From assembly GCA_008638375.1 (NCBI GenBank), contig CM018041.1:11524846-11588845 (forward strand): a stretch of DNA of 64,000 nt, in the 5' to 3' direction. The position numbers were made by a program, and so were the translations under genes. This document shows positions 23,301 through 63,410 of the stretch, in pieces; the first letter of the stretch is position 1, and every line of letters begins with the position of its first letter. The notes under the pieces are model-generated. The model did no database searches. It was not told where the DNA came from and was given only the letters and a program-made list of their open reading frames with translations. This DNA comes from Nyssa sinensis (lineage: Eukaryota; Streptophyta; Magnoliopsida; Cornales; Nyssaceae).

Positions 23301-23416
23301 GGCCTTTTTGGAGCTGAAACTTGCATAAGTTTCAAACCGGGCATCGAAACCGAGTGTCGTAAGTTCGTGCAAGTCTATTTTATCATTTTTGAGGTGTGTG
23401 ATGTGGTTTCGGTGCA
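20312..23416. repeat. 161-bp tandem array, about 19.3 copies, inside the CACTA element
   Basis: Each unit contains 'gaggtgtgtga.gtggtttc', 'gatatccggcattttggtct', 'ccccaaaatgggcctttttg', the palindrome tgaaacttgcataagtttca (8-bp arms, 4-bp loop) and 'gaaccgagtgtcgtaagttc'. Period 161 is not a multiple of three, so the 66-82-residue frames it produces on both strands do not join up and are not genes. It lies between the 3' end of the TNPA-like gene and the left terminus. Confidence 0.95.
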
Positions 23417-39970: not shown

Positions 39971-40167
39971 AATACGTTTTCAAAAGCGTCTTTTCAAAAG
40001 ACGTTTTCAAAAGCGTCTTTCCAAAATACGTTTTCAAAAAAATAAAAAAAAATATTTTTTTAAAAAACTTCTTTTTAAAAAACGCTTTTAAAACAACTTT
40101 ATTTTCGTAAATAAGTTAAAAATAACTGTAAATTAGAAAATAAATTTTTTTTTTTTACCTTAATTGA

Positions 40168-40795
40168 TGATATACCATAAAAAGACAGGCCAATCAACAC
40201 TTGACACGTATGACCACAGTCCGATTTATGTTCAGCTAGCATGACTCTCGCTCAGCCAATGACATCCAGATCATCACATAAGATCGGAAGTGACCAAACA
40301 AATATACCCAGAACTGATCACAGGATCCAGACCAGAGCTTCAGATCTCGTCACCGCCTTAGCGGATTCCGAGCAGAGAATAGGGAAACAGTCTCCAATAC
40401 GGAAACTACCATTTGTGATTATCTCCGCCTTAGCGGATTCCGGGCAGAGGATAAGGAAGCAGTCTCCAATACGGAAACTACCATTTATGATTATCTCCAT
40501 CTACGACTCAATGCCCACAAGGTAACTGCAATCTCCGATGAACATATCCCTATATTCATGGCGTCGAATCCTAATCAACTTAGGAAAGCTTCGGCCTATA
40601 TATTAAACCCTAGAGGTACGCTATTAAACTCATGCTCATTCTTTGACTTTCAATACAGTCTTTCAAATTCCCTTACTTACTTAAGCATCGGAGCGGCTAC
40701 CGCCGGAGCCAACCCGGTGGTCCTCTGATCATCTTTCTGAGTGTTCTACAGGTCACGGAGCCCTCACGTGTTGCGAGTCAAAAAGTGCAGCATCA
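40168..40795 (+). repeat. 5' LTR of gypsy copy 1
   Basis: 628 bp, tgatatacc...gcagcatca. It contains a tandem duplication of about 74 bp, each copy starting 'ccgccttagcggattccg' and holding 'cagtctccaatacggaaact' (about 40351-40498), and a TATA-like ctatatatta near 40598. Confidence 0.95.
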
Positions 40796-40814
40796 GTTTG
40801 GCGCCGTCTGTGGG
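40796..40814 (+). promoter_or_regulatory. Primer-binding-site region of gypsy copy 1
   Basis: gtttggcgccgtctgtggg directly follows the LTR, where the tRNA primer site of an LTR element must lie. The tRNA is not assigned. Confidence 0.65.
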
Positions 40815-40873
40815 AAACGACTAATCTCTACGTGCTTTATTCGTAAACTCATCTTTTTCCCCACCGGAAAACC

Positions 40874-42565
40874 ATGGCACCAAATCTCCGACCCCGACAG
40901 AATGCTCAGAGTTCGCAAAACGCTCAGCGTCAGCCGCCTGCTCCACGCACAAGAGGACCAGCGGCCAACCCTATGCGAGAAGAGATCGAAGCAATAAAAC
41001 GACACAATGACCTGGTGCAGGAGCAGTTGCTAGCCATTACTAGAACGCTGGCCACGCTCACGCAGAACCAAGCGGCGGCTTCTCCTAGCCCGCCGGCCAA
41101 CTTCGTTGCAGGAACGCAACCCCCGGTTGCCACGGGGAATGAAGAACTTCGTGGGCAGGCCCCTACTAACCAGCCTGAGCACCCTTCAGGCGTTGCTCAC
41201 GATGGCCGAGATCCACAGCCATCAACAGTTCCTGGCTGGGGAACATCCGCTTTTGTCCCCGACGTGCATTACCGGAGCACTACTCGAGCCCCAACTCCGA
41301 GGGTTTCGGGAGCACCCCCGGCACCACAGGAACCTTATCATGCAGCGCCAGTCCCACCAGTTCGGATTCCTCCTCCATCCGAAGGGCGCACTCCACCCTA
41401 TTACCCTGAAGCCGAGGCTGTCAGGCAGGGTTCACAAGATGTCAGACTCAGAGACCCGCGAAGGGTAGAGGAGATTGCCGAGTCTATGGACCGGACAATT
41501 GGCTTAAGAGGACCTCAGAACCCTCCAGAGCAAGACGAACTAGCCAGGCTGCTCGGAAGACTAGCCACACCGTTCACCTTCGCCATCATGTCCGAAGAGA
41601 GGCCTAGAAAGTTCGTGGTGCCCAAATTCACTCTCTATGACGGATCTGGAGATCCAGGGGATCACCTATCTCATTATCAGCATACGATGGCCCTTCACGG
41701 AGCTTCGGATGCTTTCATGTGCCGAACGTTCATCACCAGCTTGAAGGGAACAGCTCTGAAGTGGTTCCACAACCTCCCCCCGAACTCAGTTGCCAGCTTT
41801 TACGAGCTCGGTAGACAGTTCTTGGATAGATTTATGACCAGTAGAAGGCTCAGAAGGGGGCCAGAATTCCTGCTAAATGTTAAGCAGACCAGGGAAGAAT
41901 CCCTCCGGGCCTACATTGCCCGTTTCAACACCGAGCTTACTGAGATCACGGATTGCAGCCCGAAGTTCCTTGTTGCGGCCCTTACTGCCGGGCTTGCCCA
42001 AGGTGGCTTCAGAGATTCCCTGACAAAGAGCCCCTCGGCCGATATGGCAGCATTGATGGATCGGGCCAAAAAATACATCAACCTGGAAGAAGCCCACCGC
42101 TCAGCCCAGAAGGGCAAGGATCAGACCCAGAGGGATAATCCGAAGCGGGAGGACCATAAGAAGGAGGATCACAGAAGAGACTCCAACAAAAAGAGGGTCA
42201 GGAGCCCAGAGAAGAAAACAGCTCCCAGAGCGGTGTACAACTCCGCACCAAGGGAGTTCACCAACTTCACGCCTTTGAACACTACTCCGAATCAGGTACT
42301 CCGGCAGATCCGAGATCGGGAGAACCTGAGGTGGCCAGAGCCGATCAAAGGAGATCCCAGCCTGCGGGACCAAAGTAAGTACTGCAATTTCCATAAAGAT
42401 CATGGGCATACTACTAACACTTGCAGGACCCTCCGACATGAGATAGAACAGCTCATAAAGAAGGGACGTCTTCGGGAGTTCGTCAAACAAGATGGAAGGC
42501 AGAACCCCCAAGAAGACAAGCCTCAGCAGCGGCCAGATCAGAGGCCCGAACAGAGGCAAGAGTAG
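40874..42565 (+). CDS. gag: Gag of gypsy copy 1
   Basis: 563 codons from MAPNLRPRQNAQSSQNA. A Pro-rich N-terminal part is followed by the retrotransposon gag domain (TFITSLKGTALKWFHNLPPNSVASFYELGRQFLDRF ... RAYIARFNTELTEI, about residues 285-370). A basic region and a zinc-finger-like CNFHKDHGHTTNTC (about residue 505) then follow. It builds the virus-like particle. It ends at TAG 42563-42565, and the next frame (protease) continues in the same phase, so the stop may separate Gag from Pol or may be a mutation of CAG. Confidence 0.9.
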   Translation: MAPNLRPRQNAQSSQNAQRQPPAPRTRGPAANPMREEIEAIKRHNDLVQEQLLAITRTLATLTQNQAAASPSPPANFVAGTQPPVATGNEELRGQAPTNQPEHPSGVAHDGRDPQPSTVPGWGTSAFVPDVHYRSTTRAPTPRVSGAPPAPQEPYHAAPVPPVRIPPPSEGRTPPYYPEAEAVRQGSQDVRLRDPRRVEEIAESMDRTIGLRGPQNPPEQDELARLLGRLATPFTFAIMSEERPRKFVVPKFTLYDGSGDPGDHLSHYQHTMALHGASDAFMCRTFITSLKGTALKWFHNLPPNSVASFYELGRQFLDRFMTSRRLRRGPEFLLNVKQTREESLRAYIARFNTELTEITDCSPKFLVAALTAGLAQGGFRDSLTKSPSADMAALMDRAKKYINLEEAHRSAQKGKDQTQRDNPKREDHKKEDHRRDSNKKRVRSPEKKTAPRAVYNSAPREFTNFTPLNTTPNQVLRQIRDRENLRWPEPIKGDPSLRDQSKYCNFHKDHGHTTNTCRTLRHEIEQLIKKGRLREFVKQDGRQNPQEDKPQQRPDQRPEQRQE

Positions 42566-42643
42566 CGGGAAGGACGAAACGAGCCTCAGAGGCAGAACAA
42601 CCATGTTATCTACGTCCTCCATGCTGACTCCCCTGTTATAGGA

Positions 42644-43237
42644 ATGTCCAACAGGGCGAGAAAAAGATATGCTCGGGAGGCCAGAACCGCCCCAAACATC
42701 TTGCAGGTCTCCAACGTCGAAAAGAGGCTCAAGCCAGGGCCAGAGATCCAGTTCACCGAGCAAGATCTAGCAGGGGTACACTGCCCTCACAGTGATGCCC
42801 TTGTTATCACCCTCAGAATCGCCAACTTCGAAACTAGAAGAGTCCTAGTCGACACTGGCAGCTCAGTCAACATTCTATTCTATGAACCGCTTAAGCGGAT
42901 GGGCATAGACCAGGACAGCGTCAAGCCCACCACTGCCGTAATGGCAGCTTTTGATGGCAGCCTCAGCACCCCCCTGGGGAGAGTTGACCTTCCTACCACT
43001 ATTGGGGAAGGTGAAGGGCAGAAGACCACCATCTCTGAGTACATGGTGTTGAACATGAAGTCTCCATATAACGTCATCATCGGGAGACCCTGGTTACACC
43101 AGATAGGGGCGGTCACTTCGACCCTTCATCAGTGTCTGAAGTACGTCCACAATCAGAGCGTGCACTCGGTCCGGGGATGTCAGCCAACCTCACGAGAATG
43201 TCACGCTATTGCCCTCAAGGAGACAGCTCCAAAATAG
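42644..43237 (+). CDS. Aspartic protease region of pol, gypsy copy 1
   Basis: The active-site motif VLVDTGSSVNILFY lies near residue 70, and a second-lobe motif NVIIGRPWLH follows near residue 145, as in gypsy retropepsins. It is in the same frame as gag and RT. The frame ends at TAG 43235-43237, followed by CAATTA. Confidence 0.88.
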   Translation: MSNRARKRYAREARTAPNILQVSNVEKRLKPGPEIQFTEQDLAGVHCPHSDALVITLRIANFETRRVLVDTGSSVNILFYEPLKRMGIDQDSVKPTTAVMAAFDGSLSTPLGRVDLPTTIGEGEGQKTTISEYMVLNMKSPYNVIIGRPWLHQIGAVTSTLHQCLKYVHNQSVHSVRGCQPTSRECHAIALKETAPK

Positions 43238-43291
43238 CAATTACAGTACACTCGGGACTGTGCAGATCCAGTTTTCACTCACACTCCCGAG

Positions 43292-44647
43292 GTGGAAGAT
43301 TTCCCATCCGGCGTTGAAGAGCCCCTAAGCCCAAGGGGACGAGATAGCCGAGCCAAGCCTGTTGGCGAGCCCATCAAGATACTGGTCAGTTCAGAAACAG
43401 AGGGGCGTTATTTGTACATCGGCCCAGACCTTACGCCCACCGAGCAGGAAAAGATAGTCAAGTTTCTAAAGAACAACCTCTCTATCTTTGCTTGGGAAAC
43501 TAGGGACATGGAGGGAATAGATCCTAATCTGATAACTCACAAACTAATGGTAGATCCAGATCACCCCCCGGTCAGACAGAAGAGAAGACCGATCGCTCCC
43601 GAACGGCATCGGGTTATAAACGAAGAAGTCCAGAGGCTGCTGGACGCCAGGATGATACGGGAAGTTTTCTATCCCGAGTGGTTAGCCAACACTGTGCTCG
43701 TCAAGAAGAAGAACGGCAAGTGGAGAGTCTGTGTTGACTATACAGACCTCAACAAAGCATGCCCCAAGGACAGCTTTCCACTACCGAGAATAGATCAACT
43801 GGTTGACGCCACTGCAGGGCATGAGCTTATGAGTTTCATGGACGCCTACTCTGGATACAACCAGATCCAGATGTACCCTCCAGATCAGGAAAAGACCGCC
43901 TTCATAACCGAAAGAGGACTCTACTGCTACAGAGTGATGCCTTTCGGTTTAAAGAATGCTGGAGCCACTTACCAACGGTTGGTGAACAAGATGTTCAGCC
44001 CACTGCTTGGCAGCACCATGGAGGTATACATCGACGACATGCTGGTAAAAAGCCTCCAAAAAGGCAGCCACCTCCAGCACTTAGCCCAGACCTTCGATAT
44101 CCTCAGACAGCACAAGATGAAGCTCAACCCCTCGAAATGTACCTTCGGAGTTACGAAGGGAAAATTCTTGGGGTACATCGTCTCTCAAAGAGGTATCGAA
44201 GCAGATCCCACTCAGATCCAAGCCCTGATTAGACTGAAGTCGCCAAGGACCAGAAAGGAGATTCAGGCACTAAACGGCAGAGTCGCCGCATTGAGCAGAT
44301 TCATATCCAAGTCCACCGATCGCTGCCTACCTTTCTTTAAAGCTCTGAAGGGCAGCAAGGCCTTGCAATGGACAGAAGAATGCGAGCTTTCCTTCCAAGA
44401 ACTAAAGGAGTACCTAGCCTCTCCAGAGCTCCTGTCAAAACCTGTACAAGGGGAAAAGTTGCTCCTATACCTAGCAGTCTCTGAGAACGCGGTCAGTTCC
44501 GCACTAATCAGACAGGACAAAGGAGTACAGAGGCCTATATTCTACGTCAGTAGGGCACTACTTGACACGGAGAAAAGGTACCCAGAAGTAGAGAAGCTGG
44601 CCTATGCCTTGGTCATATCAGCCCGGAAGCTTCGACCTTACTTCTAG
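43292..44647 (+). CDS. Reverse transcriptase region of pol, gypsy copy 1
   Basis: 451 codons. RT motifs in order are ANTVLVKKKNGKWRVCVDYTDLNKACPKDSFPLPRID, SFMDAYSGYNQI, FGLKNAGATYQRLV and the catalytic YIDDMLVKS (about residue 246), then the tether (FYVSRALLDTEKRYPEVEKLAYALV). It stops at TAG 44645-44647 inside the conserved 'RPYF-AHPI' stretch, where the frame continues open on the other side, so this stop is an interruption rather than a domain end. Confidence 0.92.
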   Translation: MEDFPSGVEEPLSPRGRDSRAKPVGEPIKILVSSETEGRYLYIGPDLTPTEQEKIVKFLKNNLSIFAWETRDMEGIDPNLITHKLMVDPDHPPVRQKRRPIAPERHRVINEEVQRLLDARMIREVFYPEWLANTVLVKKKNGKWRVCVDYTDLNKACPKDSFPLPRIDQLVDATAGHELMSFMDAYSGYNQIQMYPPDQEKTAFITERGLYCYRVMPFGLKNAGATYQRLVNKMFSPLLGSTMEVYIDDMLVKSLQKGSHLQHLAQTFDILRQHKMKLNPSKCTFGVTKGKFLGYIVSQRGIEADPTQIQALIRLKSPRTRKEIQALNGRVAALSRFISKSTDRCLPFFKALKGSKALQWTEECELSFQELKEYLASPELLSKPVQGEKLLLYLAVSENAVSSALIRQDKGVQRPIFYVSRALLDTEKRYPEVEKLAYALVISARKLRPYF

Positions 44648-44719
44648 GCCCATCCAATTGAGATTCCAACTGCCTATCCTTTAAAGTCAATACTGAGGAA
44701 ACCCGAGGTATCGGGAAGA

Positions 44720-45574
44720 TTGGTCAAGTGGTCTGTGGAGCTAGGGGAGTTTGACATAGCATATGTACCCCGAAACTCCATTAAAGGGCAGGCCTTAGCT
44801 GACTTTGTAGCCGAGTTCACCCCGGCACTGCAGAACGAAGCACAAATCGCCGAAACTACAAGAACCTGGCTGCTGTATATTGATGGATCGTCAACCGATC
44901 AAGGATCAGGGGTAGGACTGGTACTACAGTCCCCTGATGGACTTACATCGGAAAAAGCAGTCAGCCTGGGATTTAAAGCTTCTAATAATGAAGCTGAATA
45001 TGAGGCCCTAATCTTAGGGATGAAGCTTGCCCTGGAATGCGAGGCTCAGAACCTCGATGTCTTCTCTGACTCCCAACTGGTAGTAAGCCAAGTTTTGGGA
45101 GAATTTGCCATTAAGGATGACAGGATGCTTCGGTACTCCGAACTGGTGAACCATTTAAAGCATTCTTTCCAGACTTTCACTATCCAGAAGATTGAGAAAA
45201 GTCAGAACTGCAGAGCAGATGCTCTGGCTAACATGGCCTCCCGCCTCAAGTCTGAAACAGACTCCACCGTTAAAATTTCTTTTCAGCCAGGATCCAGCAT
45301 TGAGGGAGCATCAGTTGCTCAAGTTGATGAACAGTCCCAGAGCTGGATGACCCCAATCCTCCAGTATCTAAGATCCGGGCTCCTCCCAGAGGATAAAAAC
45401 AAAGCCAGGAGAATCCGAATCAGAGCGGCTCGGTACCTGATCTTGAACAACAAACTTTACAGGAGGTCATATTCTCAACCTCTGTTAAAATGTTTGGCTC
45501 CAGACGAGTCACAATATGTTTTGGCTGAAATTCACGAGGGAATTTGCGGGAATCACAATGGGGGCAGAACTTAG
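44720..45574 (+). CDS. RNase H and integrase N-terminal linker of pol, gypsy copy 1
   Basis: The RNase H motifs LLYIDGSSTDQGSGVGLVL, NNEAEYEALILGMKLA and VFSDSQLVVSQ carry the catalytic acidic residues. The C-terminal part starts the integrase zinc region (EIHEGICGNH). The frame is the same as RT but closes at 45572-45574 because one base is missing just before, in a short A-run near 45568-45570. Confidence 0.9.
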   Translation: MVKWSVELGEFDIAYVPRNSIKGQALADFVAEFTPALQNEAQIAETTRTWLLYIDGSSTDQGSGVGLVLQSPDGLTSEKAVSLGFKASNNEAEYEALILGMKLALECEAQNLDVFSDSQLVVSQVLGEFAIKDDRMLRYSELVNHLKHSFQTFTIQKIEKSQNCRADALANMASRLKSETDSTVKISFQPGSSIEGASVAQVDEQSQSWMTPILQYLRSGLLPEDKNKARRIRIRAARYLILNNKLYRRSYSQPLLKCLAPDESQYVLAEIHEGICGNHNGGRT

Positions 45575-46578
45575 CCCACCGAGCTCTATCACAGGGCTAC
45601 TACTGGCCCGGCATGCTGAAACAGGCTAAAGAATATGTTCGGAAGTGTGACAAATGTCAGAGATTCACCTCGTACCAACACCAGCCTCAGCACGAGCTCA
45701 TCCCGATTCCTAGCCCCTGGCCCTTTGCTCAATGGGGAATGGACATTGTGGGCCCGTTACCACGAGCACCTCCAAACAGGAAGTATCTCCTGGTGGCTAT
45801 CGACTACTTCTCTAAATGGGCTGAAGCCGAACCTTTAACGCATATTACAGAGAAGGAAGTCGAAAACTTCACCTGGAAGAACATTGTCTGCAGATTTGGC
45901 ATACCACGTGTAATTATCTCGGATAATGGGACACAATTTACTGGTAAAGGCTTCAAGGCATTCTGCGAAAATCTCAACATCAGGCAGCACTTTGCCTCTC
46001 CAGGCCATCCACAAGCAAATGGGCAGGCAGAGGTCACCAACCGAACAATCCTTGATGGGTTAAAGAAAAGGTTGGAACAAGCCAAAGGGAAGTGGGCAGA
46101 AGAGCTCCCAGGAGTCCTTTGGGCCTACCGTACAACCAGAAGAACTCCCACCTCTGAAACACCCTTCTCATTAGCCTATGGGACAGAAGCAGTAATTCCG
46201 GTTGAAATCGGTATGCCAACTCTGAGGACTGAGGCCTTTGAGCAAGAATCCAATGATCAGCAGCTGATGGAGAACTTGGATTTGCTCGAAGAGAGAAGGG
46301 ATCAAGCCAGCATCAGGATGGAAGCCTACCAACAAAGAATGGTCAATAAATCCAGGATAGGACTCAAGACAGTCAGCTTTCAAGTTGGAAACTTCGTCTT
46401 AAGAAGAGTCTTTCAGAACACCAAGGATCCCACCATGGGAAAGTTGTCACCAAATTGGGAAGGCCCCTACAAAGTGACGAAGGTCGTTCGACCTACCACT
46501 TACTGGCTTGAAGACACGACTGGGAAACCTGTTCCTAGGCCATGGAACGTAGAACACTTGCGGAAGTATTATCAATAA
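45544..46578 (+). CDS. Integrase region of pol, gypsy copy 1
   Basis: Continues pol in another frame after the one-base loss. HRALSQGYYWPGM and CDKCQR complete the zinc-binding N-terminal domain. The catalytic core has WGMDIVGPLP, ISDNGTQFTG and GQAEVTNRTI (the D,D,E residues). The C-terminus has the GPY-type module (NWEGPYKVTKVVRPTTYWLED). There is no chromodomain. It stops at 46578, just before the minisatellite. Confidence 0.92.
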   Translation: MRESQWGQNLAHRALSQGYYWPGMLKQAKEYVRKCDKCQRFTSYQHQPQHELIPIPSPWPFAQWGMDIVGPLPRAPPNRKYLLVAIDYFSKWAEAEPLTHITEKEVENFTWKNIVCRFGIPRVIISDNGTQFTGKGFKAFCENLNIRQHFASPGHPQANGQAEVTNRTILDGLKKRLEQAKGKWAEELPGVLWAYRTTRRTPTSETPFSLAYGTEAVIPVEIGMPTLRTEAFEQESNDQQLMENLDLLEERRDQASIRMEAYQQRMVNKSRIGLKTVSFQVGNFVLRRVFQNTKDPTMGKLSPNWEGPYKVTKVVRPTTYWLEDTTGKPVPRPWNVEHLRKYYQ

Positions 46579-46605
46579 AAAAAATTTTCTTTTACTTCCT
46601 TAAAA

Positions 46606-47113
46606 CTGTTCATCTATTAATGCACAAGTCTTATGACTTGGTCCATCTATTAATGCACAGGCCTCCAGAGCCTGGTCCATCTATTAATGCACAGGCCTCC
46701 AGAGCCTGGTCCATCTATTAATGCACAGGCCTCCAGAGCCTGGTCCATCTATTAATGCACAGGCCTCCAGAGCCTGGTCCGTCTATTAATGCACAGGCCT
46801 CCAGAGCCTGGTCCATCTATTAATGCACAGGCCTCCAGAGCCTGGTCCGTCTATTAATGCACAAGTCTTATGACTTGGTCCATCTATTAATGCACAGGCC
46901 TCCAGAGCCTGGTCCATCTATTAATGCACAGGCCTCCAGAGCCTGGTCCATCTATTAATGCACAAGTCTTATGACTTGGTCCATCTATTAATGCACAGGC
47001 CTCCAGAGCCTGGTCCATCTATTAATGCACAGGCCTCCAGAGCCTGGTCCATTTATTAATGCACAAGTCTTATGACTTGGTCCATCTATTAATGCACAGG
47101 CCTTCAGAGCCTG
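46606..47113. repeat. Array of 15 hairpin-forming units (34/33 bp), gypsy copy 1
   Basis: Units read gtccatctattaatgca followed by one of two palindromes: caggcctccagagcctg (11 units) or caagtcttatgacttg (4 units). Units follow without spacers in the order B, six A, B, AA, B, AA, B, A. Both variants keep a perfect stem with different bases (CAGGC/GCCTG versus CAAGTC/GACTTG). It lies right after the integrase stop. Confidence 0.92.
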
Positions 47114-47725
47114 GACCATCTTCAACTAGCGGGTTCTGTAATCCAGTCTATCCAAAGGCAGAAGTTCCGAGCACCTGTCAACTAAAGTTTACTAGAACAG
47201 AATACCTCGGATCTGACACTTACATTATTTGACTTATCTGTCAAACAATCCAGCACCATGGTTTCAACCAAAGGTGAAGTACTTCGATTCTGGCATTTTT
47301 CTAAGTTTTTGATTTATTTTCAGAACAATCGGCAACGCATTAGAAGATGCTTAAGTTTCAAAAGAGCACATTCACAGAAAGTATCAGATCAGAGAAGAAG
47401 AAATTCAACTTTATTAATAACTCAAAAAGATTTACATCAGTACCAAGACGCTATTACAGAAGCTATTACAGAAGCTATTACAGAAGCTACGCTTGGCAAC
47501 ATAATGGCTCTTCTCCTGGGATGATAAAGGGGCACAAGATCCAAAACCTTCAAAACCGCCTTCATCGGCTCCATTTGAAAGGAAGGAACCCTGAACCCCA
47601 GTCTGCATCACGTAGTGCCCAGGCCATTTCATCATCACTATCACTGGTCCCATGACCAACGGATGATGAGGGCTCTGAGCCTCAGGAGACTTTTCATTCT
47701 CCACCTTTGTAATCGGCATGACTCC
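47114..47725. other. Spacer of gypsy copy 1
   Basis: Noncoding on reading. It holds a short direct repeat of gctattacagaa (three copies, about 47449-47490). Confidence 0.5.
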
Positions 47726-48253
47726 TCAGAAGAATAGAGCAAGGGTCTCTGCCAAGACACATGGGGGGGAAGGTAGCCCACCTTCAATCTTCTTCTTCAC
47801 ACCGTCTGTTTCACCCCAGCCACTTAGAGCAAGGGTCTCTGACAGAGCGTGAGGAAGGGGAGGCAACTCACCTTCGTCTTCATCACCAACACTCCAGGCC
47901 TCGGTTGAATCAGGGAGGGGCCACCACCAATCGGAGAAATCTCGACCGGATGCCAGAGGAAACAAGAAGACTTGGGCCTCCTTCAATCCTTCCTTGGAGA
48001 CTGAAAAAAGGGGGAGGTTAACTCTCGGCCACAGGCTCATTATTCCTAACTCAGGCAAGGAATCTTCCATCATCTCTGGACGAATGGGAGAAACTCCGGC
48101 AGCATATGAGGTTTCTCTCACAAACAAATCAGGGAGCAAAAGGGTTGAGCGCAACCGTATGCCCCGTTTCCATATATATAGACCCTTGAAGTCCAAAAGC
48201 CACCCAACCGAACCGTCGCAACGGTGAAAAAGAGAGTGGCCTCGAAAACCCAA
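47726..48253 (-). CDS. Second antisense frame of gypsy copy 1, function unknown
   Basis: 175 codons. The C-terminal half has two related Pro/Leu-rich segments (GELPPLPHALSETLALS and GGLPSPPCVLAETLALFF) and a DFSDWWWPLPDS motif. No family is recognised. It is on the same strand as the three-exon antisense gene and downstream of it. The matching part of copy 2 lies beyond the right edge, so conservation cannot be checked here. Confidence 0.35.
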   Translation of the reverse strand: MGFRGHSLFHRCDGSVGWLLDFKGLYIWKRGIRLRSTLLLPDLFVRETSYAAGVSPIRPEMMEDSLPELGIMSLWPRVNLPLFSVSKEGLKEAQVFLFPLASGRDFSDWWWPLPDSTEAWSVGDEDEGELPPLPHALSETLALSGWGETDGVKKKIEGGLPSPPCVLAETLALFF

Positions 48254-48875
48254 ACGACGGTCGAATGACTAAGCGGTGCATTAAATAAGCCTCTTCAATA
48301 TACCAAGAGACAGAGTACAGAATTCTCAAGACAGAGACCGCAGTCCAGTACTTAAGCTCCCAAATCGATAAAGAGGGGAACAAAGTCTAAAGTAAATAGA
48401 CCCCCAATTCAAAGATTCAGACCTACTGGTCTTAACTATTTCATAACGGGTCAAGACATATAACAAAGACCAAACAGATCGGATATATCCCAGTCCCGAG
48501 TACTCAGCATACCGAGCATCATAATAACGAGCACAAGCTGCTCAGTTAACCTCACAGACTCTTAATTCAGAGCAGTCTATCTCAGGGCTCTACAGAGATC
48601 CACTCCCGCTCTGTCAGGCTCTATCTATCTGGCTATATCTACTTTCTCGTCTTATTTTAATAAGGCAGATCGATTCAATGACAAGTATTGAAGATTAGAA
48701 AGCAACTGTTTGATCTAACATGCAAAGGGTTCAGAGCAGCCACACTTGCAACAAAATTCACAAGAGGGAAAAATACAAGCAGAATCTGAAGAAAAGTCAA
48801 TCTTATTGATCAAAAGGGAAAATATATTCACTACATCAAAAAAAAAAAAAAAAAGAACCAAAAGCCTATAAAGCC

Positions 48876-50781
48876 TCAAGATTTCCCAGAGGGGCCTGCG
48901 TCCTCTTCCAAATTAAGGGCATGAGCCCCAGCAGTCTTATCCGGATCAGGACGAGATGAGATAGGTTCAGGAGGAACGATTGATGACACATGAAAGTCCG
49001 GGAACTGAAGTTGGAATCTAGTTCGAAAATTCTCAAAGCCGAGCAGGATCAGGTCATCACCCATCTGATCAACTTCCTCTTTTAATTCCATCTCAGCCTC
49101 AGCTTTGGCTTGACCAACTGCCTCCTGAACCCTCTGATCAATGGAACTACGGAGACCAACCAACTCCGCCTCAAGCCTCTCAACCGTCTGAGCAAATATA
49201 TCCCTCTCAGACTCTGCTACCTTAAGGCTGGTGGTAGCTTTCTCCAGACCCTCTTCAGCAGACTGAATTTTGGAACGGGCTGTTCCGAGCTCCAGTCTCA
49301 TCTCGTTCACCTCCGTCCTCAGCTTCTCGGCCTCCTCAAGGCCCATGGGGGTCACCATCAGAACAGCTAAACTATGCATGCTCTGTATAAAGCAAGACAG
49401 ATAAATTAGAGTGAAACAAATGAGCAAACAAAAGGCCAGGGAAAGGCTTCAGAAGTTACCTTCATCTGGAGAGTCATCATCTCAGTCATCAATATGGAGG
49501 GATCATCCCCTCTGTACCGATGTGGGCCCTGAACCCATATTTTATCAAATGCCTTCTTGGCAATTTGATAATCCGGCTCAACAAATGGCTCAGAAGGTGC
49601 GGCAGGAGCTTTCCCCTTCCTAGACCTCTTGCTCGGACCAGGAGGAACAGCCGATACGGGAATGGCAGGCTCGGCTTCCTCAGCCTCGGCAGGGGAGGGC
49701 TCAGGGGAACCAGAGATCAATCTCCTCTTCTTCACTTCTAAAGGAGCATCAGGCTCAGCTGGGGAGGAAGACTCCCCCACCACTTGAGGCTTCGGCACTT
49801 CCCACCTCGAGGCTAGCCTCCTCTTAAACTCTGCGCTACGGGTGGCCATCACTTGGTCCGGAGTGACGATAACAGTATGAGCCCGGTTAGAAGTTGAAAG
49901 CAAAGCCCGGTACTGATCCTGCAGAGCCTTAGTAAACTTGGGCCTCTTCCGAGCACTCTTGACTGCACAAAGGAAATGAAAAATACCAAGTTTATCAGTT
50001 CTGAGGATATAAGCAAAGCTAAAGCAAACCCAAGAGAATAAGTCTCACCCCTATGGCCCGTAACACAAGGAAACGACGAGGTCTCTCCGGCCTGGAAGTC
50101 CTTATGCTCCCATCCTCCTCCAACGAAGAAGTACCACTTCTTCCACGTCTTGTTGGAAGTAGGAACGGAAGACAGGGGTCGGAACCCCTTCTCGAAGGAC
50201 ATATAATAGAGGCCCTCTGCCTGCTTGAACTTCAGATCCATATTGCTACGGATCAAGTCCAGAGACACGTCCACTTTGTTCAGGTGTCCCAGCACCATAA
50301 AACCTAGAAGATGCCGCCAGCTATTGAGATTCAGGTCGGCGGGGCAGAGCTTGAACCAACAGAAGAATTGCCTGACTAAATCCAGCAATGGAAGCCTTAA
50401 GCCCATTTCAAACCAGGCAAGGAAAACACAAATCTCCCCGGCTTTAACATCTTGAGGACGGTCCATGGGTTCTGGAACTCTGCAAGTCACATTTGGGGGA
50501 AATTTGAATTTCACCCTCCATTCATCTAAGAGGCTTTGAGTGACGGCACTCTCACCCTCTTCTCTATGAGAAGACCTACCAGAGGTCTCCCCGGCCCTGT
50601 CTCGGGGCTCTTCGAAAGCATCAACTATTCTAACCCCTGGACTAGGGGGAGGATCAACAGGCCTCTCCTCAATAATTTCAAGAGCAGGGTTACCTACATC
50701 TCCTACAACAGACGGACCAGCCATCTCAGAATGGTCTCCTACTCCCTCATTCACAATTCGAGATTCCGAAAGAACAGACAT
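48876..50781 (-). CDS. Intact three-exon antisense gene of the gypsy element, coiled-coil protein
   Basis: Exons 50049-50781, 49460-49962 and 48876-49382 (733, 503 and 507 nt) splice at GT-AG into 580 codons without a stop. The start MSVLSESRIVNEGVG corresponds to MSASSESPIVNEGVG in copy 2. Exon 1 ends with a conserved region (DEWRVKFKFPPNVTCRVPEPMD, LRLPLLDLVRQFF, FEKGFRPLSSVPTSNKTWKKWYFFVGGGWEH) like plant proteins labelled 'putative gypsy type transposon', a name I recall but could not verify. Exon 2 is Pro/Ala/Glu-rich with basic patches (KKRRLISGS, SKRSRKGKAPA). Exon 3 is a long coiled coil (EEAEKLRTEVNEMRLELGTARSKIQ). It has its own TATA box. Function unknown; retention while pol decays suggests a role for the element. 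Confidence 0.82.
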
Positions 50782-50950
50782 TATTCTCAAACTCAAGAAG
50801 AAAGAAGCAAGAGAGGGGAAAAAATCAGTCGAACCTGTTTTCACTTAGGGGATCTGTATTCTTCAAGGTCGCACGAACCAACAATGGAGGATGAAATCTT
50901 CTAGCACAGTAAAAATGTCGAGGGAAAGGTCATTTCAAAAATCTCATCCC

Positions 50951-50960
50951 GTATTTATAA
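50951..50960 (-). promoter_or_regulatory. TATA box of the antisense gene, copy 1
   Basis: TTATAAATAC on the minus strand, 179 nt upstream of the antisense ATG. The same decamer occurs 178 nt upstream of the ATG in copy 2. Confidence 0.7.
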
Positions 50961-51176
50961 ACACGATATCAGAAGGGACCCACCAAGCCCAAACGCCATG
51001 ACGGTTCAGAACAATGATGCCCTCAAGAAAACCAACTGTCCGCCCAGTGTAATTGTGACCTTGAAAAGACTTAATCGCCGACTACGCAATAAATGGCGCC
51101 CCAACAATTGTCTTGGAAGGCGAAAAAGCGAGACACATAACTCTCTTAGCCCTAGTTACTTACATCAAACTAGGAC

Positions 51177-51190
51177 TTGGGGGGGGAGTA
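51177..51190 (+). promoter_or_regulatory. Polypurine tract of gypsy copy 1
   Basis: A G-rich run (ttgggggggga) just before the 3' LTR, where plus-strand synthesis is primed. Copy 2 has the matching C-run at about 57951-57962. Confidence 0.75.
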
Positions 51191-51192
51191 AC

Positions 51193-51820
51193 TGATATAC
51201 CATAAAAAGACAGGCCAATCAACACTTGACACGTATGACCACAGTCCGATTTATGTTCAGCTAGCATGACTCTCGCTCAGCCAATGACATCCAGATCATC
51301 ACATAAGATCGGAAGTGACCAAACAAATATACCCAGAACTGATCACAGGATCCAGACCAGAGCTTCAGATCTCGTCACCGCCTTAGCGGATTCCGAGCAG
51401 AGAATAGGGAAACAGTCTCCAATACGGAAACTACCATTTGTGATTATCTCCGCCTTAGCGGATTCCGGGCAGAAGATAAGGAAGCAGTCTCCAATACGGA
51501 AACTACCATTTATGATTATCTCCATCTACGACTCAATGCCCACAAGGTAACTGCAATCTCCGATGAACATATCCCTATATTCATGGCGTCGAATCCTAAT
51601 CAACTTAGGAAAGCTTCGGCCTATATATTAAACCCTAGAGGTACGCTATTAAACTCATGCTCATTCTTTGACTTTCAATACAGTCTTTCAAATTCCCTTA
51701 CTTACTTAAGCATCGGAGCGGCTACCGCCGGAGCCAACCCGGTGGTCCTCTGATCATCTTTCTGAGTGTTCTACAGGTCACGGAGCCCTCACGTGTTGCG
51801 AGTCAAAAAGTGCAGCATCA
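51193..51820 (+). repeat. 3' LTR of gypsy copy 1
   Basis: 628 bp, one difference from the 5' LTR found by reading (51474). It ends in gcagcatca followed by the attga target copy. Confidence 0.95.
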
Positions 51821-53287
51821 ATTGAGTATTTAACTCTCATCAGTGGACTACAACGGGGAACTTATATATCATTGAAAGTGCAAAATTACTCAACATTTAC
51901 TTTTCAATATTTATTCTTTAACTGAAGCTTATCTATCACCCCAGCAAGCTGTGCATTTACACTCCTTTGAGAAACCTCCATCATTGTTTTGCAACGACAG
52001 CCGCGTTTCCTCGAGGTATTCGAGTAACAAGGTTCCACCAATTTCCGAGACCTGTCAAACATTAAGGAGGAAGTCAAAATGCAGAGAGAAAGAGTGAATT
52101 ATATTGGAAGTTAACAACCAAGAACTTGCAGCAAAATATTTTACTGCATCATGTTAAGTAAAAAATTTCTTATTCATAGGTAAGAAATTCAAGAAACAAA
52201 CCAAATTTATAATTTATGTCCACAGGATCACAAGGTTGAAACAACAGCCAAGTAAATGTGAAGTTTCTATTGCTCCTTTAAGCATAAGTTATACAACTGT
52301 TCTCACCGAAAAACAATCTATGCTGTGCAGCAGGTTGATTCACATAATTCATGCTAAACCCCTGCTGCATTTTTAACCTCAGAATCCATCTTTCCCTGAA
52401 ACAATATGAACAAGAATTATAGTCAAATCAATGCAACTCATGAACATGAAAGAATAAGATATAAATGTAGCTGCATGTCATATAAATTGGAAGTAGTCAT
52501 GAAAATTTAGTCATGGTTATATTAATTAGCTAATAGTGAATTTCAGGTTTAAAAATAAATCCATATTACTTCAGTGCCATAGGGGAGAAATTGGGTGGTG
52601 GTAAGCAGTAAGAAAATAAGATAACAATTACTGGGTCAGAGATTGCAGGACTATAGTTTTTAACAATTTCACAATTGACAAGGTTCTGAGTCATAGACAA
52701 ACCTCGGCTGGAGAACTGTTCCGAACCTTCTGCATAGGAGTCCTCATTGTGACAAGCTCCTCTGCTGTTATAGGATGAATTCCCACTGTGGCATCAAAAT
52801 CTGCCTTCGCCAAGCCAGCTTTCACAGCAACTGCAAATCCCTGGTGTTTTAACAAAATGTAATCACATTAACTGCAGAATTTATAACAACAATTTAATAA
52901 AATCACGCAGCTGAGAAAAGGCAGAAAAAACCTGCACAATTTCTGGTGAATCTTCTCCCCACATGTGCAACCCAAGAACCTTGTTCGTCTTTGCACATAC
53001 TATAAGTTTCATGAAAATGGGGTCTGGAAGTCCAGAAAGAGTCGCCTTTAAGGGCCTGAAGTTTGCAGTGAAGATATCAACATCACCGTATTCTTTTATA
53101 GCCTGCAAAAATCCTTAAAATATTAAGCGCAACGAGCCAATCAGATCTGTTGCATATGATGTTCATAATGTCACCTGTTCTTCAGTAACACCAACTTGTC
53201 CAATAGGGGGCCGAGAAAACACAGCAGACGCTACAGCCCTAGTTGAAAGCAGATAAATCTGGTCAGGAAGCTATTAATCATCAACTT

Positions 53288-58373: not shown

Positions 58374-61300
58374 ATGTCTGCTTCTTCTGAATCCCCGATT
58401 GTGAATGAGGGAGTGGGAAGTCCTTCTGAGATGGTTGTTCCGTCTCTTGTGGAAAATGCAGGTAACCCTGCTCCCGAAGTTATTGGGGAGAGGCCTGTTG
58501 ATCCTCCCACTAGTCCTGGAGTTAGGATAGTTGATGCTTTTGAGGAGCCCCGAGACAGGGCTGGGGAGACCTCTGGTAGGTCTTCTCATAGAGAAGAGGG
58601 TGAGAGTGCTGTCACTCAGAGCCTTCTTGACGAGTGGAGGGTGAAATACAACTTTCCCCCGAACGTGACCTGCAGAGTGCCAGGCCCCATGGATCGTCCC
58701 CAAAATGTTGAAGCCGGGGAGATTTGTGTTTACCCTGCCTAGTTCGAAATGGGCCTGAGACTCCCTTTTCTGGATTTAGTCAGGCAATTCTTTTGTTGGT
58801 ATAAGCTCTGCCCTGCCGACCTGAACCTCAATAGCTGGTGACAGCTTCTAGGGTTCATAGTATTGGGACACCAAAATAAGGTGGATGTGTCCCTAGACTT
58901 GATCCGTAGCAGTATGGATTTGAAGTTTAAACAGGCAGAAGGCCTTTTCTATATGTCCTTCGAGAAGGGGTTCCGACCCCTGTCCTCCGTTCCCACTTCC
59001 AATAAAACGTGGAAAAAGTGGTATTTCTTCATCGGAGGAGGATGAGAGCATGAAGGCTTTCAGGAAGGAGAGGCCTCGCCATTCCCTCGTGTTACGGGTC
59101 ATAAGTGTAATACCCCGACCCAAAATGGCACAAATATCGAGGCAGTCGGGTCAGGCAACACTATATCAATTGTACTTGGAGCTGTTTAATCCTATATTTT
59201 ATGAATATCAAAATACATATATACATGTGTATTAAATGGGTATATATTATGTATTTATACATTATTATAAAATAGGATATATATATGTATATAAAATAAA
59301 AATATAAAAACCTACTCCACCTAACCTATACCTATAGGTATGGAGAGGGGTATGGGAGAAATCAGAAAATCATGGAGGAGGGTATGGCCAGCCATGCTTG
59401 GTTGAGTGTGGTTGGGGCAAGAGATATAAATATATATATATATATATTATATAAAAGTGTATATACATCTCTTTGTGTGGGAGTGAGGAAAACAGAGATA
59501 GAAAAGTGAAGCAGAGTTCTGGGGCAGTGAGCACGGGGAGAAAAAAAGCATAGAACCAGAAGCAGATCTTAGAGAGAGAGAGAGAGCAGTAGAGAGAGAA
59601 AGAAAGATCAATTTGAAGCAATTGGAGGAAACATACAAACAGGTAACCAATTATGCTCGTTGCTTCAATTTTTACTCTATGCTGTTATAGATCTAATTTT
59701 GAATTTATGGGAATCAAAATATGAAAGAAAAACATGAAAACCAAGAACTTTAGCTACGGTCAACAATGGTAGATTTTGGTAGGTCCATTTGAACGCGATT
59801 TTAGGACTTAAAATGGGTAGCCAAGTTCATTAGGAACTCAACGGAATTTGAACCATCTAAAACGGTTGAGAAATGGCCATTCTATGGCCGATTATTCTCT
59901 CGCCGGTGCAACGCCGGAAAACCGGCTATGGGTGTCGGAAAACCGTGGCCAATCCAACTAAAAACAGTCTAAAAATGATGCTTGAGATTCTAGAAATGAT
60001 TCGATATGAAAATCGTAAATTTTGGACTTCAAAATGGTGTAAAACAGTGGGTTGGCCGAGATTCCGGTGACCGGAATTGACAGGGGTGACCGGAGAAGAC
60101 CACCGAAAAAATGGGGGGGCCATGTCGGGTCAAATGGGACCGGGTTCGGGTCTGGATCGGGTCGGGACCGACCGGATTTAAACGGGTCGTGACACGTGTC
60201 GTGTGGAGGTTGAATTTTAAAGTTTTAAACTGAACCGGTCGGTTCAGTTGAGGTTCAAACCGGTTTAGGGTTTTTAACCCTGAACCAGTGGGTTCAGACC
60301 GGATTTAATGGAAATTTCGAACCGGCCCCAGAATTTTGAGTAAATGCCACTGTTGCCCAAAACAGAAAACTAATAAAATATTAATTTTTTTCAAAAATGC
60401 CCCTAATCCAAAAATAAGTCAAATGAAGTCCGAACGGGGCGAATGAATAGTCAAACTTTATTATCTCGGGCATTCCGGATCTAATGGTGGGACCCGTTTT
60501 ACGAGACGGGACTCCAAACATTAAAATACAATGAGAACAAGTCTTAAAATGACCAAAATACCCCTGTGTCCTGACAAGGCAAGTTATATGGGTATTCTTA
60601 CTATCTCGGACCCACTGAATCCAACGGTGAGGTCAGAATTATAAAAAGAGGTTTCGGGAATAAAAGTACCTACAAGTACAAAAGACAATTTTGCCCTTTT
60701 TAATCCGGACGTCCGATTTAAGATCTGTAAAAGCCTAAACTTATTTTATTCGACGTTCCGAATACAATGACGACATCTAAATCAGTAATAGAGATACCGA
60801 TAGCCAAGATTAGCAAATTTGAATATCGAGTATGGTTCGATTACAGTTATAGACTGAGTTATTTTCAATTGACAGGCACGTCAAAAGAGAAGGGGAAGGA
60901 GACTTTAATTAGTTGAACTACTGAGAGTCATTTTGAGGTAAGTAATTCTGACGCTTTAATATGGGTTATTCCCAGCCAGTCACGTTATTGTTCTTATACT
61001 GCCAATTTGTACTCCATTACTACCTGATGCACTTGATTTGAGCCAACCGACTTGTGGATATCAGTTTACCTGATTTTGGATTTGATTTGCTTGCTCACAT
61101 CACTTTGAGATTGATCATTGATATTTGAATATTATTGCACTATCGTACCATGACCTAGTCTTGAGATACCTTCTACTGATTCCACACACTTTGTGTTTCA
61201 TTGTTTGTGATATCAAATGTTTGGTATGTTGTACATCTTGTGTGGGATATTGTTGGTCATGATATTTGGTATGTACTCGGGGTTGTGCTCAGTCACAATG

Positions 61301-63410
61301 ACCCATCCATTCACGGATTGCGTGGGGGAAAAGACCCATTAGGGTCTGTTGCGTCCTACGGGACCTGTATTGAAAAGAGCTCTAACGCTTTTCAGAGAGC
61401 CCGAGGAACCGTGGCGGATCTGAGCATTGCGTTTTAGTGGGGTATGCCGGGCCCCGGGTAATTCACGTATATCTGGGTTACTTGAACTCGATATTGACTT
61501 ATTATTGTTTCCATTGTATGATCATATTTTTTTATACTTGGTGAAATGATCATTCTGTTGCAAGCATGGTATATCTTTGATTGGCTAACGTATCGTTGTG
61601 GCAGCAAACCATCATGATAGGCTAGATCCCAATTTCATTTGACTTGGTTATTGACTCTTGTGTTATATTGTGGGATATGCCTTTTGGACCCTCGGGTCAA
61701 TGTTTTACACATTTTGGTGACTGGCTACGTCTTCATTATTGTTCACTGGGCTATCTGTTATTCCTTATTCTATCATTTCATTGGACAAACCCGAACCCAC
61801 ATTAAAGCCAGGAATTTACTTATTGGGCTATTAGCTCACCCCCCTCCCTTAAATTTTTCAGGACAACAAGAAATCGGGGAACCCTCAGGCGCTCCAGGGA
61901 TTTAGACGCTGCTAGTTACTGGTAGCTGTTTTGGCGAGTTTTATATTAAGTTAAATATTGTCAGGTCTTAATACTCCCATGTCACCACGGTCCTGTTTGT
62001 TAGTTTTGTTTTTGAAGGATCTGTATTTAACACTTATAATTTTTGGACATGCATCAAATGGTGAACTAACTGTGCTACCAGATATTTTAATGATTAAGAA
62101 ATGCTTTTGTTAAAACTTTACCCAGCATTTTAGATCCTTTTGGACGGGGAACGGCCCACGGGCCGCAGACCCGGGTCACGGATCCCTAATCCGCATAGGG
62201 TGGGTTTTGGGTCGTGACAATAAGGGTGAGGCTTATTCCTTTAGATTTATTTTAGCCTTGTTATGCCTTCCGAACTGATAAACTGATATATCTTTTCTTA
62301 CTTGTGTGCAGTCAAGAGTGCTTGGAAGAGGCCCGATTTTACTAAAGCACTGCGAGATCAGTACCGAGTGCTGCTTTCAACTTTCAACCAAGCTCATTCT
62401 GTTATTGTGACTCCGGAGAACTTGATGGCTGCCCGTTCTGCCGAGCTTAAAAAGAGGCTGACGACGAAGTGGGCTATGCCGGAGGCCCCAATGGTGGGGG
62501 AGTCTTCCTCCCGAGCAGAGCCGGATGCCCCCCTTGAGGTGAAAAGGAGGAGGTTGATTTCTGGCTCTCCCGAGCCGGCCCCTGCCGAGGCTGAGAAGGA
62601 GGCCGAACCTGCCGTCCCTGTTTCGGCTGCCCCTCCTGCCCCTTCTGGTTCAAGCAGGAGGACTAGGAAGGGGAAAGCACCTGCTGCACCGTCCGAGCCA
62701 TTTAATGAGCCGGACTATCAGATTGCCAAGAGGGCATTTGATCAAATATGGGCTCATGGCCCACACCGATACAGAGGGGATGACCCCTCCAAGCTGATGA
62801 CTGAGATGATGAATCTCCAGATGAAGGTAACTTCTGAAGCTTTTTCTTGACTTTTCTGTTTGTCTATTCGTTCAATCTAAACTATCTGTCTTGCTTTGCG
62901 CAGAGCATGCATAGTTTGGCTGCTCTGATGGTGACCCCCATAGGCCTTGAGGAGGCCGAGAAGCTGAGGGCCGAGGTGGATGAGATGAGGCTGGAGCTCG
63001 GGACAGCCCGATCCAAGATTCAGAGCACTGAGGAGGATCTGAAGGAAGCTACCACCAACCTTTCTGTGGCAGAGTCTGAGAGGGACATGTATGCTAAGAA
63101 GGTTGAGGGGCTTCGGGCGGAGTTGGTTGAGCTCCGGGGTTCCTTTAATCAAAAGGTTCAGGAGGCAGCTGATCAAGCCAAGGTTGAGGCTGAGATGGAA
63201 TTGAAAGATGAAGTTGAACAGATGGGTGATGACCTGATCCGGTTCGGTTTCGAAAGCTTCAGAACTAGGTTTCAGATTTAGTTCCCAGGTTTTGACGTTT
63301 CATCAATCGTTCCCCCTGAACCTACCTCATCTCTTCCTGATCCGGACAAGACGGCTGGGGCTCCCGCCCTTAACTTGGAAGAGGACGCAGGCCCTTCTGG
63401 GAAGTCTTGA
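58374..63410 (+). pseudogene. Decayed copy of the antisense gene in gypsy copy 2
   Basis: Exon 1 is 58374-59105 plus base 62225 after the nested solo LTR, exon 2 is 62312-62826 and exon 3 is 62904-63410 (733, 515 and 507 nt). Exons 1 and 3 equal copy 1 in length and exon 2 differs by 12 nt, in frame. Introns are 86 and 77 nt, as in copy 1. Four nonsense codons interrupt it: TAG 58740, TGA 58839, TGA 59043 and TAG 63279. In copy 1 these positions encode Trp, Arg, Trp and Gln. Three need only one C-to-T or G-to-A change; the Arg site (CGG in copy 1) needs two from that codon. A poly(A) signal follows at 63472. Confidence 0.85.
59106..62219. mobile_element. Solo LTR, 3.1 kb, inside gypsy copy 2
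   Basis: It starts TGTAATACCCCGACCC and ends GGGTCGTGACA (TG...CA with inverted ends), flanked by the 5-bp duplication ataag (59101-59105, 62220-62224). There are no coding frames. Length and termini suit a large plant gypsy LTR, possibly Del/Tekay-like, which I cannot confirm. Recombination between two LTRs would explain the missing body. Confidence 0.8.

What the first reader, a model, noticed from the sequence alone, without database searches (positions are those of the whole stretch)
48876..50960. Intact antisense three-exon gene inside a retrotransposon whose own pol is broken
Seen: three exons (733, 503, 507 nt) with GT-AG introns of 86 and 77 nt give 580 open codons on the strand opposite gag-pol, with a TATA box 179 nt upstream. 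Copy 2 of the family has the same layout: same TATA decamer at 178 nt, same intron sizes, exon 1 and exon 3 of identical length, exon 2 longer by 12 nt. Known: Tat/Retand-type gypsy elements can carry extra or antisense frames after integrase. Inference: a complete, independently promoted gene, perhaps regulating the element or its host, has been kept while sense pol lost function. The protein is basic in the middle with a long C-terminal coiled coil.
Basis: partly seen in the sequence, partly recalled or inferred. Interest (0 to 1): 0.82.

Follow-up and report, generated by a model that had tools for sequence, protein, structure and literature searches.

The report
Spliced antisense gene in Retand retrotransposon
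A recently inserted plant retrotransposon carries, on the strand opposite its own genes, an intact three-exon gene that evolution has kept as a protein; this kind of antisense gene was already catalogued in this group of elements, but I found no description of its introns.

Summary
The element (40168-51820) is a young Retand-type Ty3/gypsy element; the protein carries Transposase_28 (TRP28, PF04195). Vicient 2025 (PMC11963269) reports antisense TRP28 ORFs in 97% of young Retand clusters, and its cluster "Nyssa sinensis 1" very probably is this family. What I did not find in print is the gene structure: intron 1 keeps position and phase in relatives 50-56% identical over exon 1 (intron 2 found in one of those three), and exons, not introns, show coding constraint (dN/dS 0.195). 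In the 40 most similar copies all keep both introns and 30 are open. "Kept while pol lost function" fails at family level: the TAG at 43235 is in 19 of 19 copies, in a type I readthrough context (UAG CAA UUA), and 9 of 19 have an open pol frame as far as read. This copy's own lesions are two rare TAGs and a 1-nt frame change. Most likely this is the element's own nuclear accessory gene. No RNA could be examined; a spliced-retrocopy search found none.

The parts
40168..40795 (+). 5' LTR (628 bp, TG...CA), preceded by target-site duplication ATTGA (40163-40167)
   Evidence: 1 mismatch of 628 to the 3' LTR; ATTGA on both sides
40799..40814 (+). primer-binding-site-like sequence TGGCGCCGTCTGTGGG
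   Evidence: read from sequence; tRNA type not tested
40874..42565 (+). gag (Retrotrans_gag PF03732); ends at TAG 42563, present in 2 of 19 copies including this one
42644..43237 (+). aspartic protease region
   Evidence: PF13650 23.8 bits, just under its cut-off of 24.3
43235..43243 (+). TAG CAA TTA: gag-protease/pol boundary, type I readthrough context
   Evidence: 19 of 19 copies; same place in L079, L080 (TAG) and L081 (TAA); motif definition from PMC3542737
43292..44647 (+). reverse transcriptase and RNase H; cut by TAG 44645, present in 2 of 19 copies including this one
44720..45574 (+). second RNase H (aRH, RVT_3), between RH and INT
45544..46578 (+). integrase, in another frame in this copy (1-nt length difference within 45480-45610, seen in the window copy only of 19)
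46611..47121 (.). 34/101-bp tandem repeat array after integrase
48876..49382 (-). antisense gene exon 3 (507 nt, stop at 48878-48876), coiled-coil-like C-terminus
49383..49459 (-). intron 2 (77 nt, GT-AG, phase 0)
49460..49962 (-). antisense gene exon 2 (503 nt), basic clusters
49963..50048 (-). intron 1 (86 nt, GT-AG, phase 1)
50049..50781 (-). antisense gene exon 1 (733 nt, ATG begins at 50781); Transposase_28 match at residues 117-176
50951..50960 (-). TATA decamer TTATAAATAC, 179 nt before the ATG
   Evidence: at 179 nt in 38 of 40 copies, 178 nt in one, exact decamer not found in one
50967..51007 (-). 41-nt block identical between copies 1 and 2, just upstream of the TATA box
   Evidence: permutation p 0.061, only suggestive
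51193..51820 (+). 3' LTR, preceded by a G-rich tract (51179-51188), followed by ATTGA (51821-51825)
58374..59105 (+). copy 2 exon 1 except its last base (62225); in-frame stops at codons 123, 156, 224
62226..63410 (+). copy 2 intron 1 to exon 3 (exon 2 515 nt; stop at codon 538 in copy 1 numbering); boundaries by arithmetic from the alignment

Best explanation
The locus is the accessory TRP28 gene of a young Retand-type (Tat clade) Ty3/gypsy element, almost certainly in Nyssa sinensis. Shown: a three-exon gene whose protein has been under purifying selection, and whose introns are present in every relative in which exon 2 could be recognised. Inferred: it is transcribed by RNA polymerase II from an internal promoter (TATA at 50960-50951) between the gene and the 3' LTR, spliced, and translated to a 580-residue protein. 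On the genomic (sense) RNA the introns are reverse complements lacking their splice sites, so the RNA cycle does not remove them; antisense orientation is what lets a retroelement keep introns. Inferred, about 50% likely: the protein works in the nucleus (basic clusters in exon 2, TRP28 domain, coiled-coil-like C-terminus for dimerisation), binding nucleic acid or chromatin to serve the element's own expression or integration. It is kept by selection on active elements, not on single inserted copies and not for the host. The broken pol is a property of this one copy.
For: Domain order gag-AP-RT-RH-aRH-INT and PF04195 (8 of 8 exon 1 sequences of the alignment). dN/dS 0.195 between copies 1 and 2, 0.06-0.12 over codons 61-240. 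The 40 best-scoring copies all keep exon and intron lengths and GT..AG; 30 of 40 open. Variants shared by several copies are synonymous-rich (24/22/1 synonymous/missense/nonsense, expected 14/30.9/2.1, p 0.002), single-copy variants near neutral (72/117/8, expected 58.6/129.6/8.8, p 0.042): selection before insertion, decay after. Intron 1 has the same position and phase in 6 of 9 chosen TRP28 loci (L067, L069, L070, L072, L073, L075), intron 2 in 4 of those 6. KKRRLIS-like basic cluster in L067, L069, L070, L072. Maize Grande's antisense protein is nuclear and has its own promoter according to PMC7264820.
Against: No RNA evidence was examined. The spliced exon 1-exon 2 junction was not found in the genome (0 hits, up to 3 mismatches); the exon 2-3 junction and the positive control did not complete (only locally: the unspliced pattern fits 40 of 40 fetched copies, the spliced ones 0 of 40). 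So splicing has no direct witness. The 40 copies were ranked by a query that includes the introns, which favours intron-bearing, intact copies. 5 of the 10 broken copies share one stop at codon 532, so an element with a protein truncated near its end has multiplied. PF04195 is met only at its cut-off (26.2 bits whole protein; 28.0 on exon 1). One reverse-strand frame also gives low dN/dS (0.26); its third positions coincide with those of the gene, so direction rests on open frames, ATG, splice sites and TATA. Donor altered in L068; intron 1 not found in L071 and L074; intron 2 not found in L073 and L075 with the motifs used. Promoter block only suggestive (p 0.061). No usable fold (mean pLDDT 39.6).
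Confidence: 0.8

Rival explanations
1. The antisense transcript itself, not the protein, acts: it pairs with genomic RNA, feeds small RNAs or hinders reverse transcription, as reviewed for antisense transcripts of other LTR elements.
For: Any such transcript would overlap the element's own RNA; PMC7264820 (part 2) and PMC12786077 (passages) discuss the mechanism.
Against: It does not explain third-position variation, in-frame exon indels and relaxed introns, nor the conserved protein domain in relatives 43-56% identical over exon 1. It could act in addition.
Confidence: 0.12
2. One reading: in this element the antisense gene is specially preserved while sense pol is dispensable, a gene under selection of its own.
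For: Window copy: gene intact, pol with two rare stops and a frame change although the LTRs differ at 1 of 628 positions. Gene intact more often than length predicts from pol, p 0.02 with and 0.054 without the window copy.
Against: 9 of 19 copies have an open pol frame as far as read and all 9 an intact gene; the sample was chosen on the gene; single-copy variants in the gene are near neutral; the frame change could be an assembly error (PacBio assembly polished with Quiver and Pilon, PMC6877568, passages).
Confidence: 0.06
3. Chance: unrelated antisense ORFs that happen to be joinable by GT-AG sites.
For: The exon 1 frame of copy 1 stays open past intron 1 to a stop at 49851-49849, so part of the openness is accidental.
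Against: Codon-position pattern p 3e-16 in the spliced frame; the first part of exon 2 follows the spliced frame (6/4/12), not the read-through frame (4/12/6); same intron positions in distant relatives.
Confidence: 0.02

Closest known systems
Antisense TRP28 (Transposase_28, PF04195) ORFs of Retand elements, incl. cluster 'Nyssa sinensis 1' (Vicient 2025, PMC11963269; parts 1-3 of 5 of the text read)
   Same: Antisense between pol and 3' LTR, TRP28 domain. Cluster values: LTR 627, internal 10,468, pol-3'LTR 4,582, two tandem arrays; here 628, 10,397, 4,614 and two arrays of three or more units (46611-47121, 47446-47489).
   Different: That survey used ORF Finder (ORFs of 600 nt or more); the word 'introns' does not occur in its held text. 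The gene here needs two introns. Its other antisense ORFs with Smc, Mis12 or mitotic-checkpoint matches may be coiled-coil exons of the same gene (my inference, untested).
Maize Grande gene23 (via the review PMC7264820, parts 1-2 of 3; original paper not seen)
   Same: Antisense accessory gene between pol and 3' LTR; reported own upstream promoter and nuclear protein.
   Different: Transcription and localisation are reported there; here only sequence features were seen. Sequence similarity was not tested.
Silene Retand ORF4 (via PMC7264820)
   Same: Antisense, TRP28 domain; Retand is described as carrying a tandem repeat (title of the cited paper only).
   Different: Weak ubiquitous expression is reported there; introns are not mentioned in the parts read.
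HTLV-1 HBZ (as cited in PMC11963269)
   Same: Analogy only: antisense accessory protein of a retroelement, nuclear.
   Different: No homology claimed or tested; the HTLV antisense promoter lies inside the 3' LTR (PMC7264820), here the TATA lies in the internal region.

Membership tests
Retand lineage (Ty3/gypsy, Tat) | aRH domain between RH and INT (shared with Ogre; PMC6317226) | tested here: met
   RVT_3 at 44720-45574 between RT_RNaseH and integrase; definition from passages
Retand lineage (Ty3/gypsy, Tat) | antisense TRP28 ORF between pol and 3' LTR (97% of young clusters) | tested here: met
   PF04195 26.2 bits, exactly the cut-off; 28.0 bits on exon 1 alone
Retand lineage (Ty3/gypsy, Tat) | long pol-3'LTR region (2,933-6,566 bp) | tested here: met
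   about 4,614 bp (46579-51192); range
Retand lineage (Ty3/gypsy, Tat) | RT/RH/INT phylogenetic placement | not tested
   no tree was built; Ogre is set aside only because TRP28 is reported for Retand (23%) and the plant mobile domain for Ogre (57%)
Transposase_28 (PF04195) | score at or over the curated cut-off | tested here: met
   150 of 150 scored places in the same genome pass, 0 of 14 control genomes
Antisense accessory genes like Grande gene23 | own promoter | tested here: inconclusive
   TATA decamer in 39 of 40 copies; no transcript data; upstream block p 0.061
Antisense accessory genes like Grande gene23 | nuclear protein | not testable with these tools
   only basic clusters seen
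Type I (tobamovirus-like) readthrough stop at the gag-protease/pol boundary | UAG CAR YYA in frame between the two ORFs | tested here: met
   definition PMC3542737 (passages); L081 has UAA
Type I (tobamovirus-like) readthrough stop at the gag-protease/pol boundary | measured readthrough | not testable with these tools
   needs a reporter assay

The most novel reading that the evidence does not exclude
Retand elements carry an ancient intron-bearing gene that a retroelement can keep only because it is antisense to the genomic RNA. An intron at a fixed position and phase in families 50-56% identical over exon 1 means the gene entered as DNA (from a host gene, a DNA virus or another transposon), not as a processed transcript, and that ORF-based surveys have been counting its exons as separate antisense ORFs.
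Probability: 0.55. Interest if true: 0.6.

Novelty: new variant of a known kind. Interest (0 to 1): 0.42.

Why it matters
Vicient 2025 leaves the origin and function of TRP28 open. Conserved introns are a handle on origin: they argue for acquisition at DNA level and give positions to compare with any candidate donor gene. They suggest that surveys should be splice-aware, and they give two exact junctions that the deposited RNA-seq of Nyssa sinensis leaf and flower (PMC6877568) could confirm or refute at once. The shared UAG CAA UUA at the protease/RT boundary would, if it works, explain how these two-ORF elements make pol, and removes a false 'lesion' from annotation.

Tried and rejected
Protein searches with exon 1 alone and with copies 1+2 found nothing; with an 8-sequence alignment 3 hits, one a Nyssa sinensis protein that gave away the host. 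Viral contigs and genome-contig scans: no relative. PDB: nothing significant (best E 0.09; none). Single-sequence fold useless. The idea that all three sense-frame stops are lesions was dropped. The solo-LTR reading of 59106-62219 rests on TG..CA ends, a 5-bp duplication and the absence of a long repeat within, and was not tested further. A host function was dropped for want of evidence.

Dropped before counting: L042 (no gag-pol in the stretch) from the 20 pol stretches including the window; L049 and L065 from the 40 copies in the variant count (38 used), because their stretches looked 6.9% and 8.6% diverged, although within the exons they differ by only 1.5-1.7%, so the divergence is in the flanks and they need not have been dropped; L070 and copy 2 (stops in exon 1) and L074 from the 8-sequence alignment. 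One search also counted stops in the gag-protease part, but several stretches begin inside gag and out of frame, so those counts are not used. L078 gave no protease or RT and contains a chance TAG CAG TCA.

Full report
What is there. The antisense gene lies in a complete LTR element, 40168-51820. The LTRs are 628 bp with one mismatch, the flanks carry the duplication ATTGA, and a TGGCGCC primer-site-like sequence follows the 5' LTR. With recalled rates of 6.5e-9 to 1.3e-8 per site per year, one mismatch is roughly 60,000-120,000 years, with the wide error of a single event. The sense strand encodes gag, protease, RT-RH, a second RNase H (RVT_3) and integrase in that order. RVT_3 between RH and INT marks Ogre and Retand (PMC6317226, passages); TRP28 on the antisense strand points to Retand. 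No tree was built.

The gene. Without splicing, the exon 1 frame of copy 1 runs through intron 1 and ends at 49849. Three facts say the introns are real. Substitutions between copies 1 and 2 are third-position biased in all three exons and unbiased in both introns, and the first part of exon 2 follows the spliced and not the read-through frame. Introns are more diverged (25-26%) than exons (15-18%) and AT-rich. The only exon indels are 3 and 9 nt. dN/dS is 0.195 (bootstrap 0.148-0.258): 0.139, 0.215 and 0.275 in exons 1-3, lowest (0.06-0.12) over codons 61-240, which contain the TRP28 match. Of the other five frames four give 1.12-1.55 and one reverse frame 0.26; in that one the third positions coincide with those of the gene.

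Copies. The window lies in a 1.0-Gb genome. The host is therefore inferred to be Nyssa sinensis (Cornales). The DNA search scored 40 of 4048 first-look candidates. These 40, window included, all keep exon and intron lengths and GT..AG; 30 of 40 are open throughout. They are the 40 best matches to a query that includes the introns, so intactness and intron retention are upper estimates. Of the 10 broken copies 5 share one stop at codon 532, near the end of the protein, so an element with that truncation has multiplied. Among 38 of the 40, variants shared by several copies are depleted in amino-acid changes (p 0.002, adjusted ratio 0.41) and private ones are close to neutral (0.74, p 0.042), with 8 nonsense against 8.8 expected. 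That is what I would expect of a transposon protein: selected while the lineage is active, decaying after insertion.

Sense genes. Of 20 pol stretches (19 fetched plus the window) one, L042, had no gag-pol and was dropped. TAG at 43235 is in 19 of 19, always as CCAAAA TAG CAATTACAG. TAG at 42563 and at 44645 are each in 2 of 19, this copy included. The 1-nt length difference within 45480-45610 is only in the window copy. The pol frame after 43235 is open in 9 of 19: 7 with a 1113-codon frame and 2 open to the end of the fetched stretch. All 9 have an intact antisense gene, against 7 of the 10 with a broken pol (Fisher p 0.21). So the family is not pol-less, and the claim that the antisense gene was specially kept is at most marginal (p 0.02, or 0.054 without the window copy, biased sample). 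The frame change may be an assembly error: the assembly is PacBio, polished with Quiver and Pilon.

A side result on the boundary. UAG CAA UUA is the type I readthrough motif (UAG CAR YYA; PMC3542737, passages). It is the only stop followed by CARYYA on the sense strand of 40796-46600. The same stop-CAA-TTA-CAG stands at the same place in three other elements: L079 (protease 86-88% identical, RT pieces 66-95%) and L080 (protease 61%, RT 76%) with UAG, and L081 (protease 54%, RT 67%, decayed) with UAA. A fourth, L078, gave no protease or RT, and holds a chance UAG CAG UCA. Whether the stop reads through was not tested. The listings of searches (titles and starts of abstracts) showed no paper on such a stop in Retand; only open-licence papers are held.

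Age of the introns. 150 of 150 scored places in the genome pass the PF04195 cut-off (6369 first-look candidates; 0 of 14 control genomes). I chose 9 of the 150 for diversity and mostly for open frames and fetched them. Identity to the window over exon 1 in the seven aligned is 95, 84, 79, 56, 53, 50 and 43% (L067, L068, L069, L072, L073, L075, L071). Intron 1 has the same position and phase in 6 of 9 (L067, L069, L070, L072, L073, L075; for L067 read from the tblastn exon ends), with lengths about 86-109; in L068 the intron is there but its donor is altered; in L071 and L074 exon 2 was not recognised. None of the loci with a recognisable exon 2 lacks intron 1. Intron 2 was looked for in the six and found at the same place, phase 0, in L067, L069, L070 and L072. 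A genome search for the spliced exon 1-exon 2 junction found no retrocopy. Its genome-wide positive control and the exon 2-3 junction did not complete; locally the unspliced pattern fits 40 of 40 fetched copies and the spliced ones 0 of 40. Intron retention fits the orientation: the splice sites of the antisense gene do not exist on the genomic RNA.

Compared with print. Vicient 2025 (PMC11963269; parts 1-3 of 5 read) surveyed 617 genomes; 97% of clusters of young Retand elements carry antisense TRP28 ORFs. Table 1 lists 'Nyssa sinensis 1' with LTR 627, internal region 10,468, pol-3'LTR 4,582, all domains, TRP28 and two tandem arrays. The element here has 628, 10,397, 4,614 and two arrays of three or more units. 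It is very probably that cluster. The survey used unspliced ORFs, and the review PMC7264820 (parts 1-2 of 3) asks for spliced antisense transcripts to be looked for; 'introns' occurs in neither text. The listings of searches showed no paper describing introns in TRP28 genes. The original Grande, Silene Retand and extra-ORF papers were not seen.

Mechanism. Best reading: an element-encoded nuclear accessory protein from an internal antisense promoter. Shown: coding constraint, intron conservation, TRP28, basic clusters (KKRRLIS-like in four relatives), the TATA decamer in 39 of 40 copies. Inferred: transcription, splicing, nuclear site, nucleic-acid binding and benefit to the element. The prediction that TRP28 binds DNA is Vicient's. 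Rivals: an antisense-RNA function (possible in addition), special preservation (weak) and chance (contradicted).

Noticed in passing
43235-43243 (+); L079, L080, L081: Stop with type I readthrough context (TAG CAA TTA CAG) between protease and RT in 19 of 19 copies, and at the same place in three elements of other subfamilies or families (L081 has TAA).
   Followed up: partly
59106-62219: 3114-bp TG..CA insertion with 5-bp duplication ATAAG, one base before the end of exon 1 of copy 2; no long repeat inside, so perhaps a solo LTR.
   Followed up: partly
39101-39970 (-): AP2-domain ORF (first ATG at 39799) whose ATG is 369 bp from the 5' end of the young element: a recent insertion just upstream of a transcription-factor-like ORF.
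   Followed up: no
40353-40498 and 51378-51523: 72-bp tandem duplication within both LTRs.
   Followed up: no
20313-23416: 161-bp unit tandem array, 19.3 copies, 96% matches: satellite-like.
   Followed up: no
25052-28737 (-): ORFs with Transposase_21 (tnp2), Transpos_assoc and DUF4216: CACTA-type transposon (type recalled).
   Followed up: no
antisense gene, codon 532 (L010, L023, L025, L051, L066): Five of the 40 copies share one stop near the C-terminus, so a truncated version has been multiplied; the last 49 residues may be dispensable, or the protein was supplied in trans.
   Followed up: partly
P0002; contig C2 of G000: Published Nyssa sinensis protein F0562_003748 (301 aa) matches the exon 1 profile; its contig length identified the host. 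Its exon structure was not checked.
   Followed up: partly
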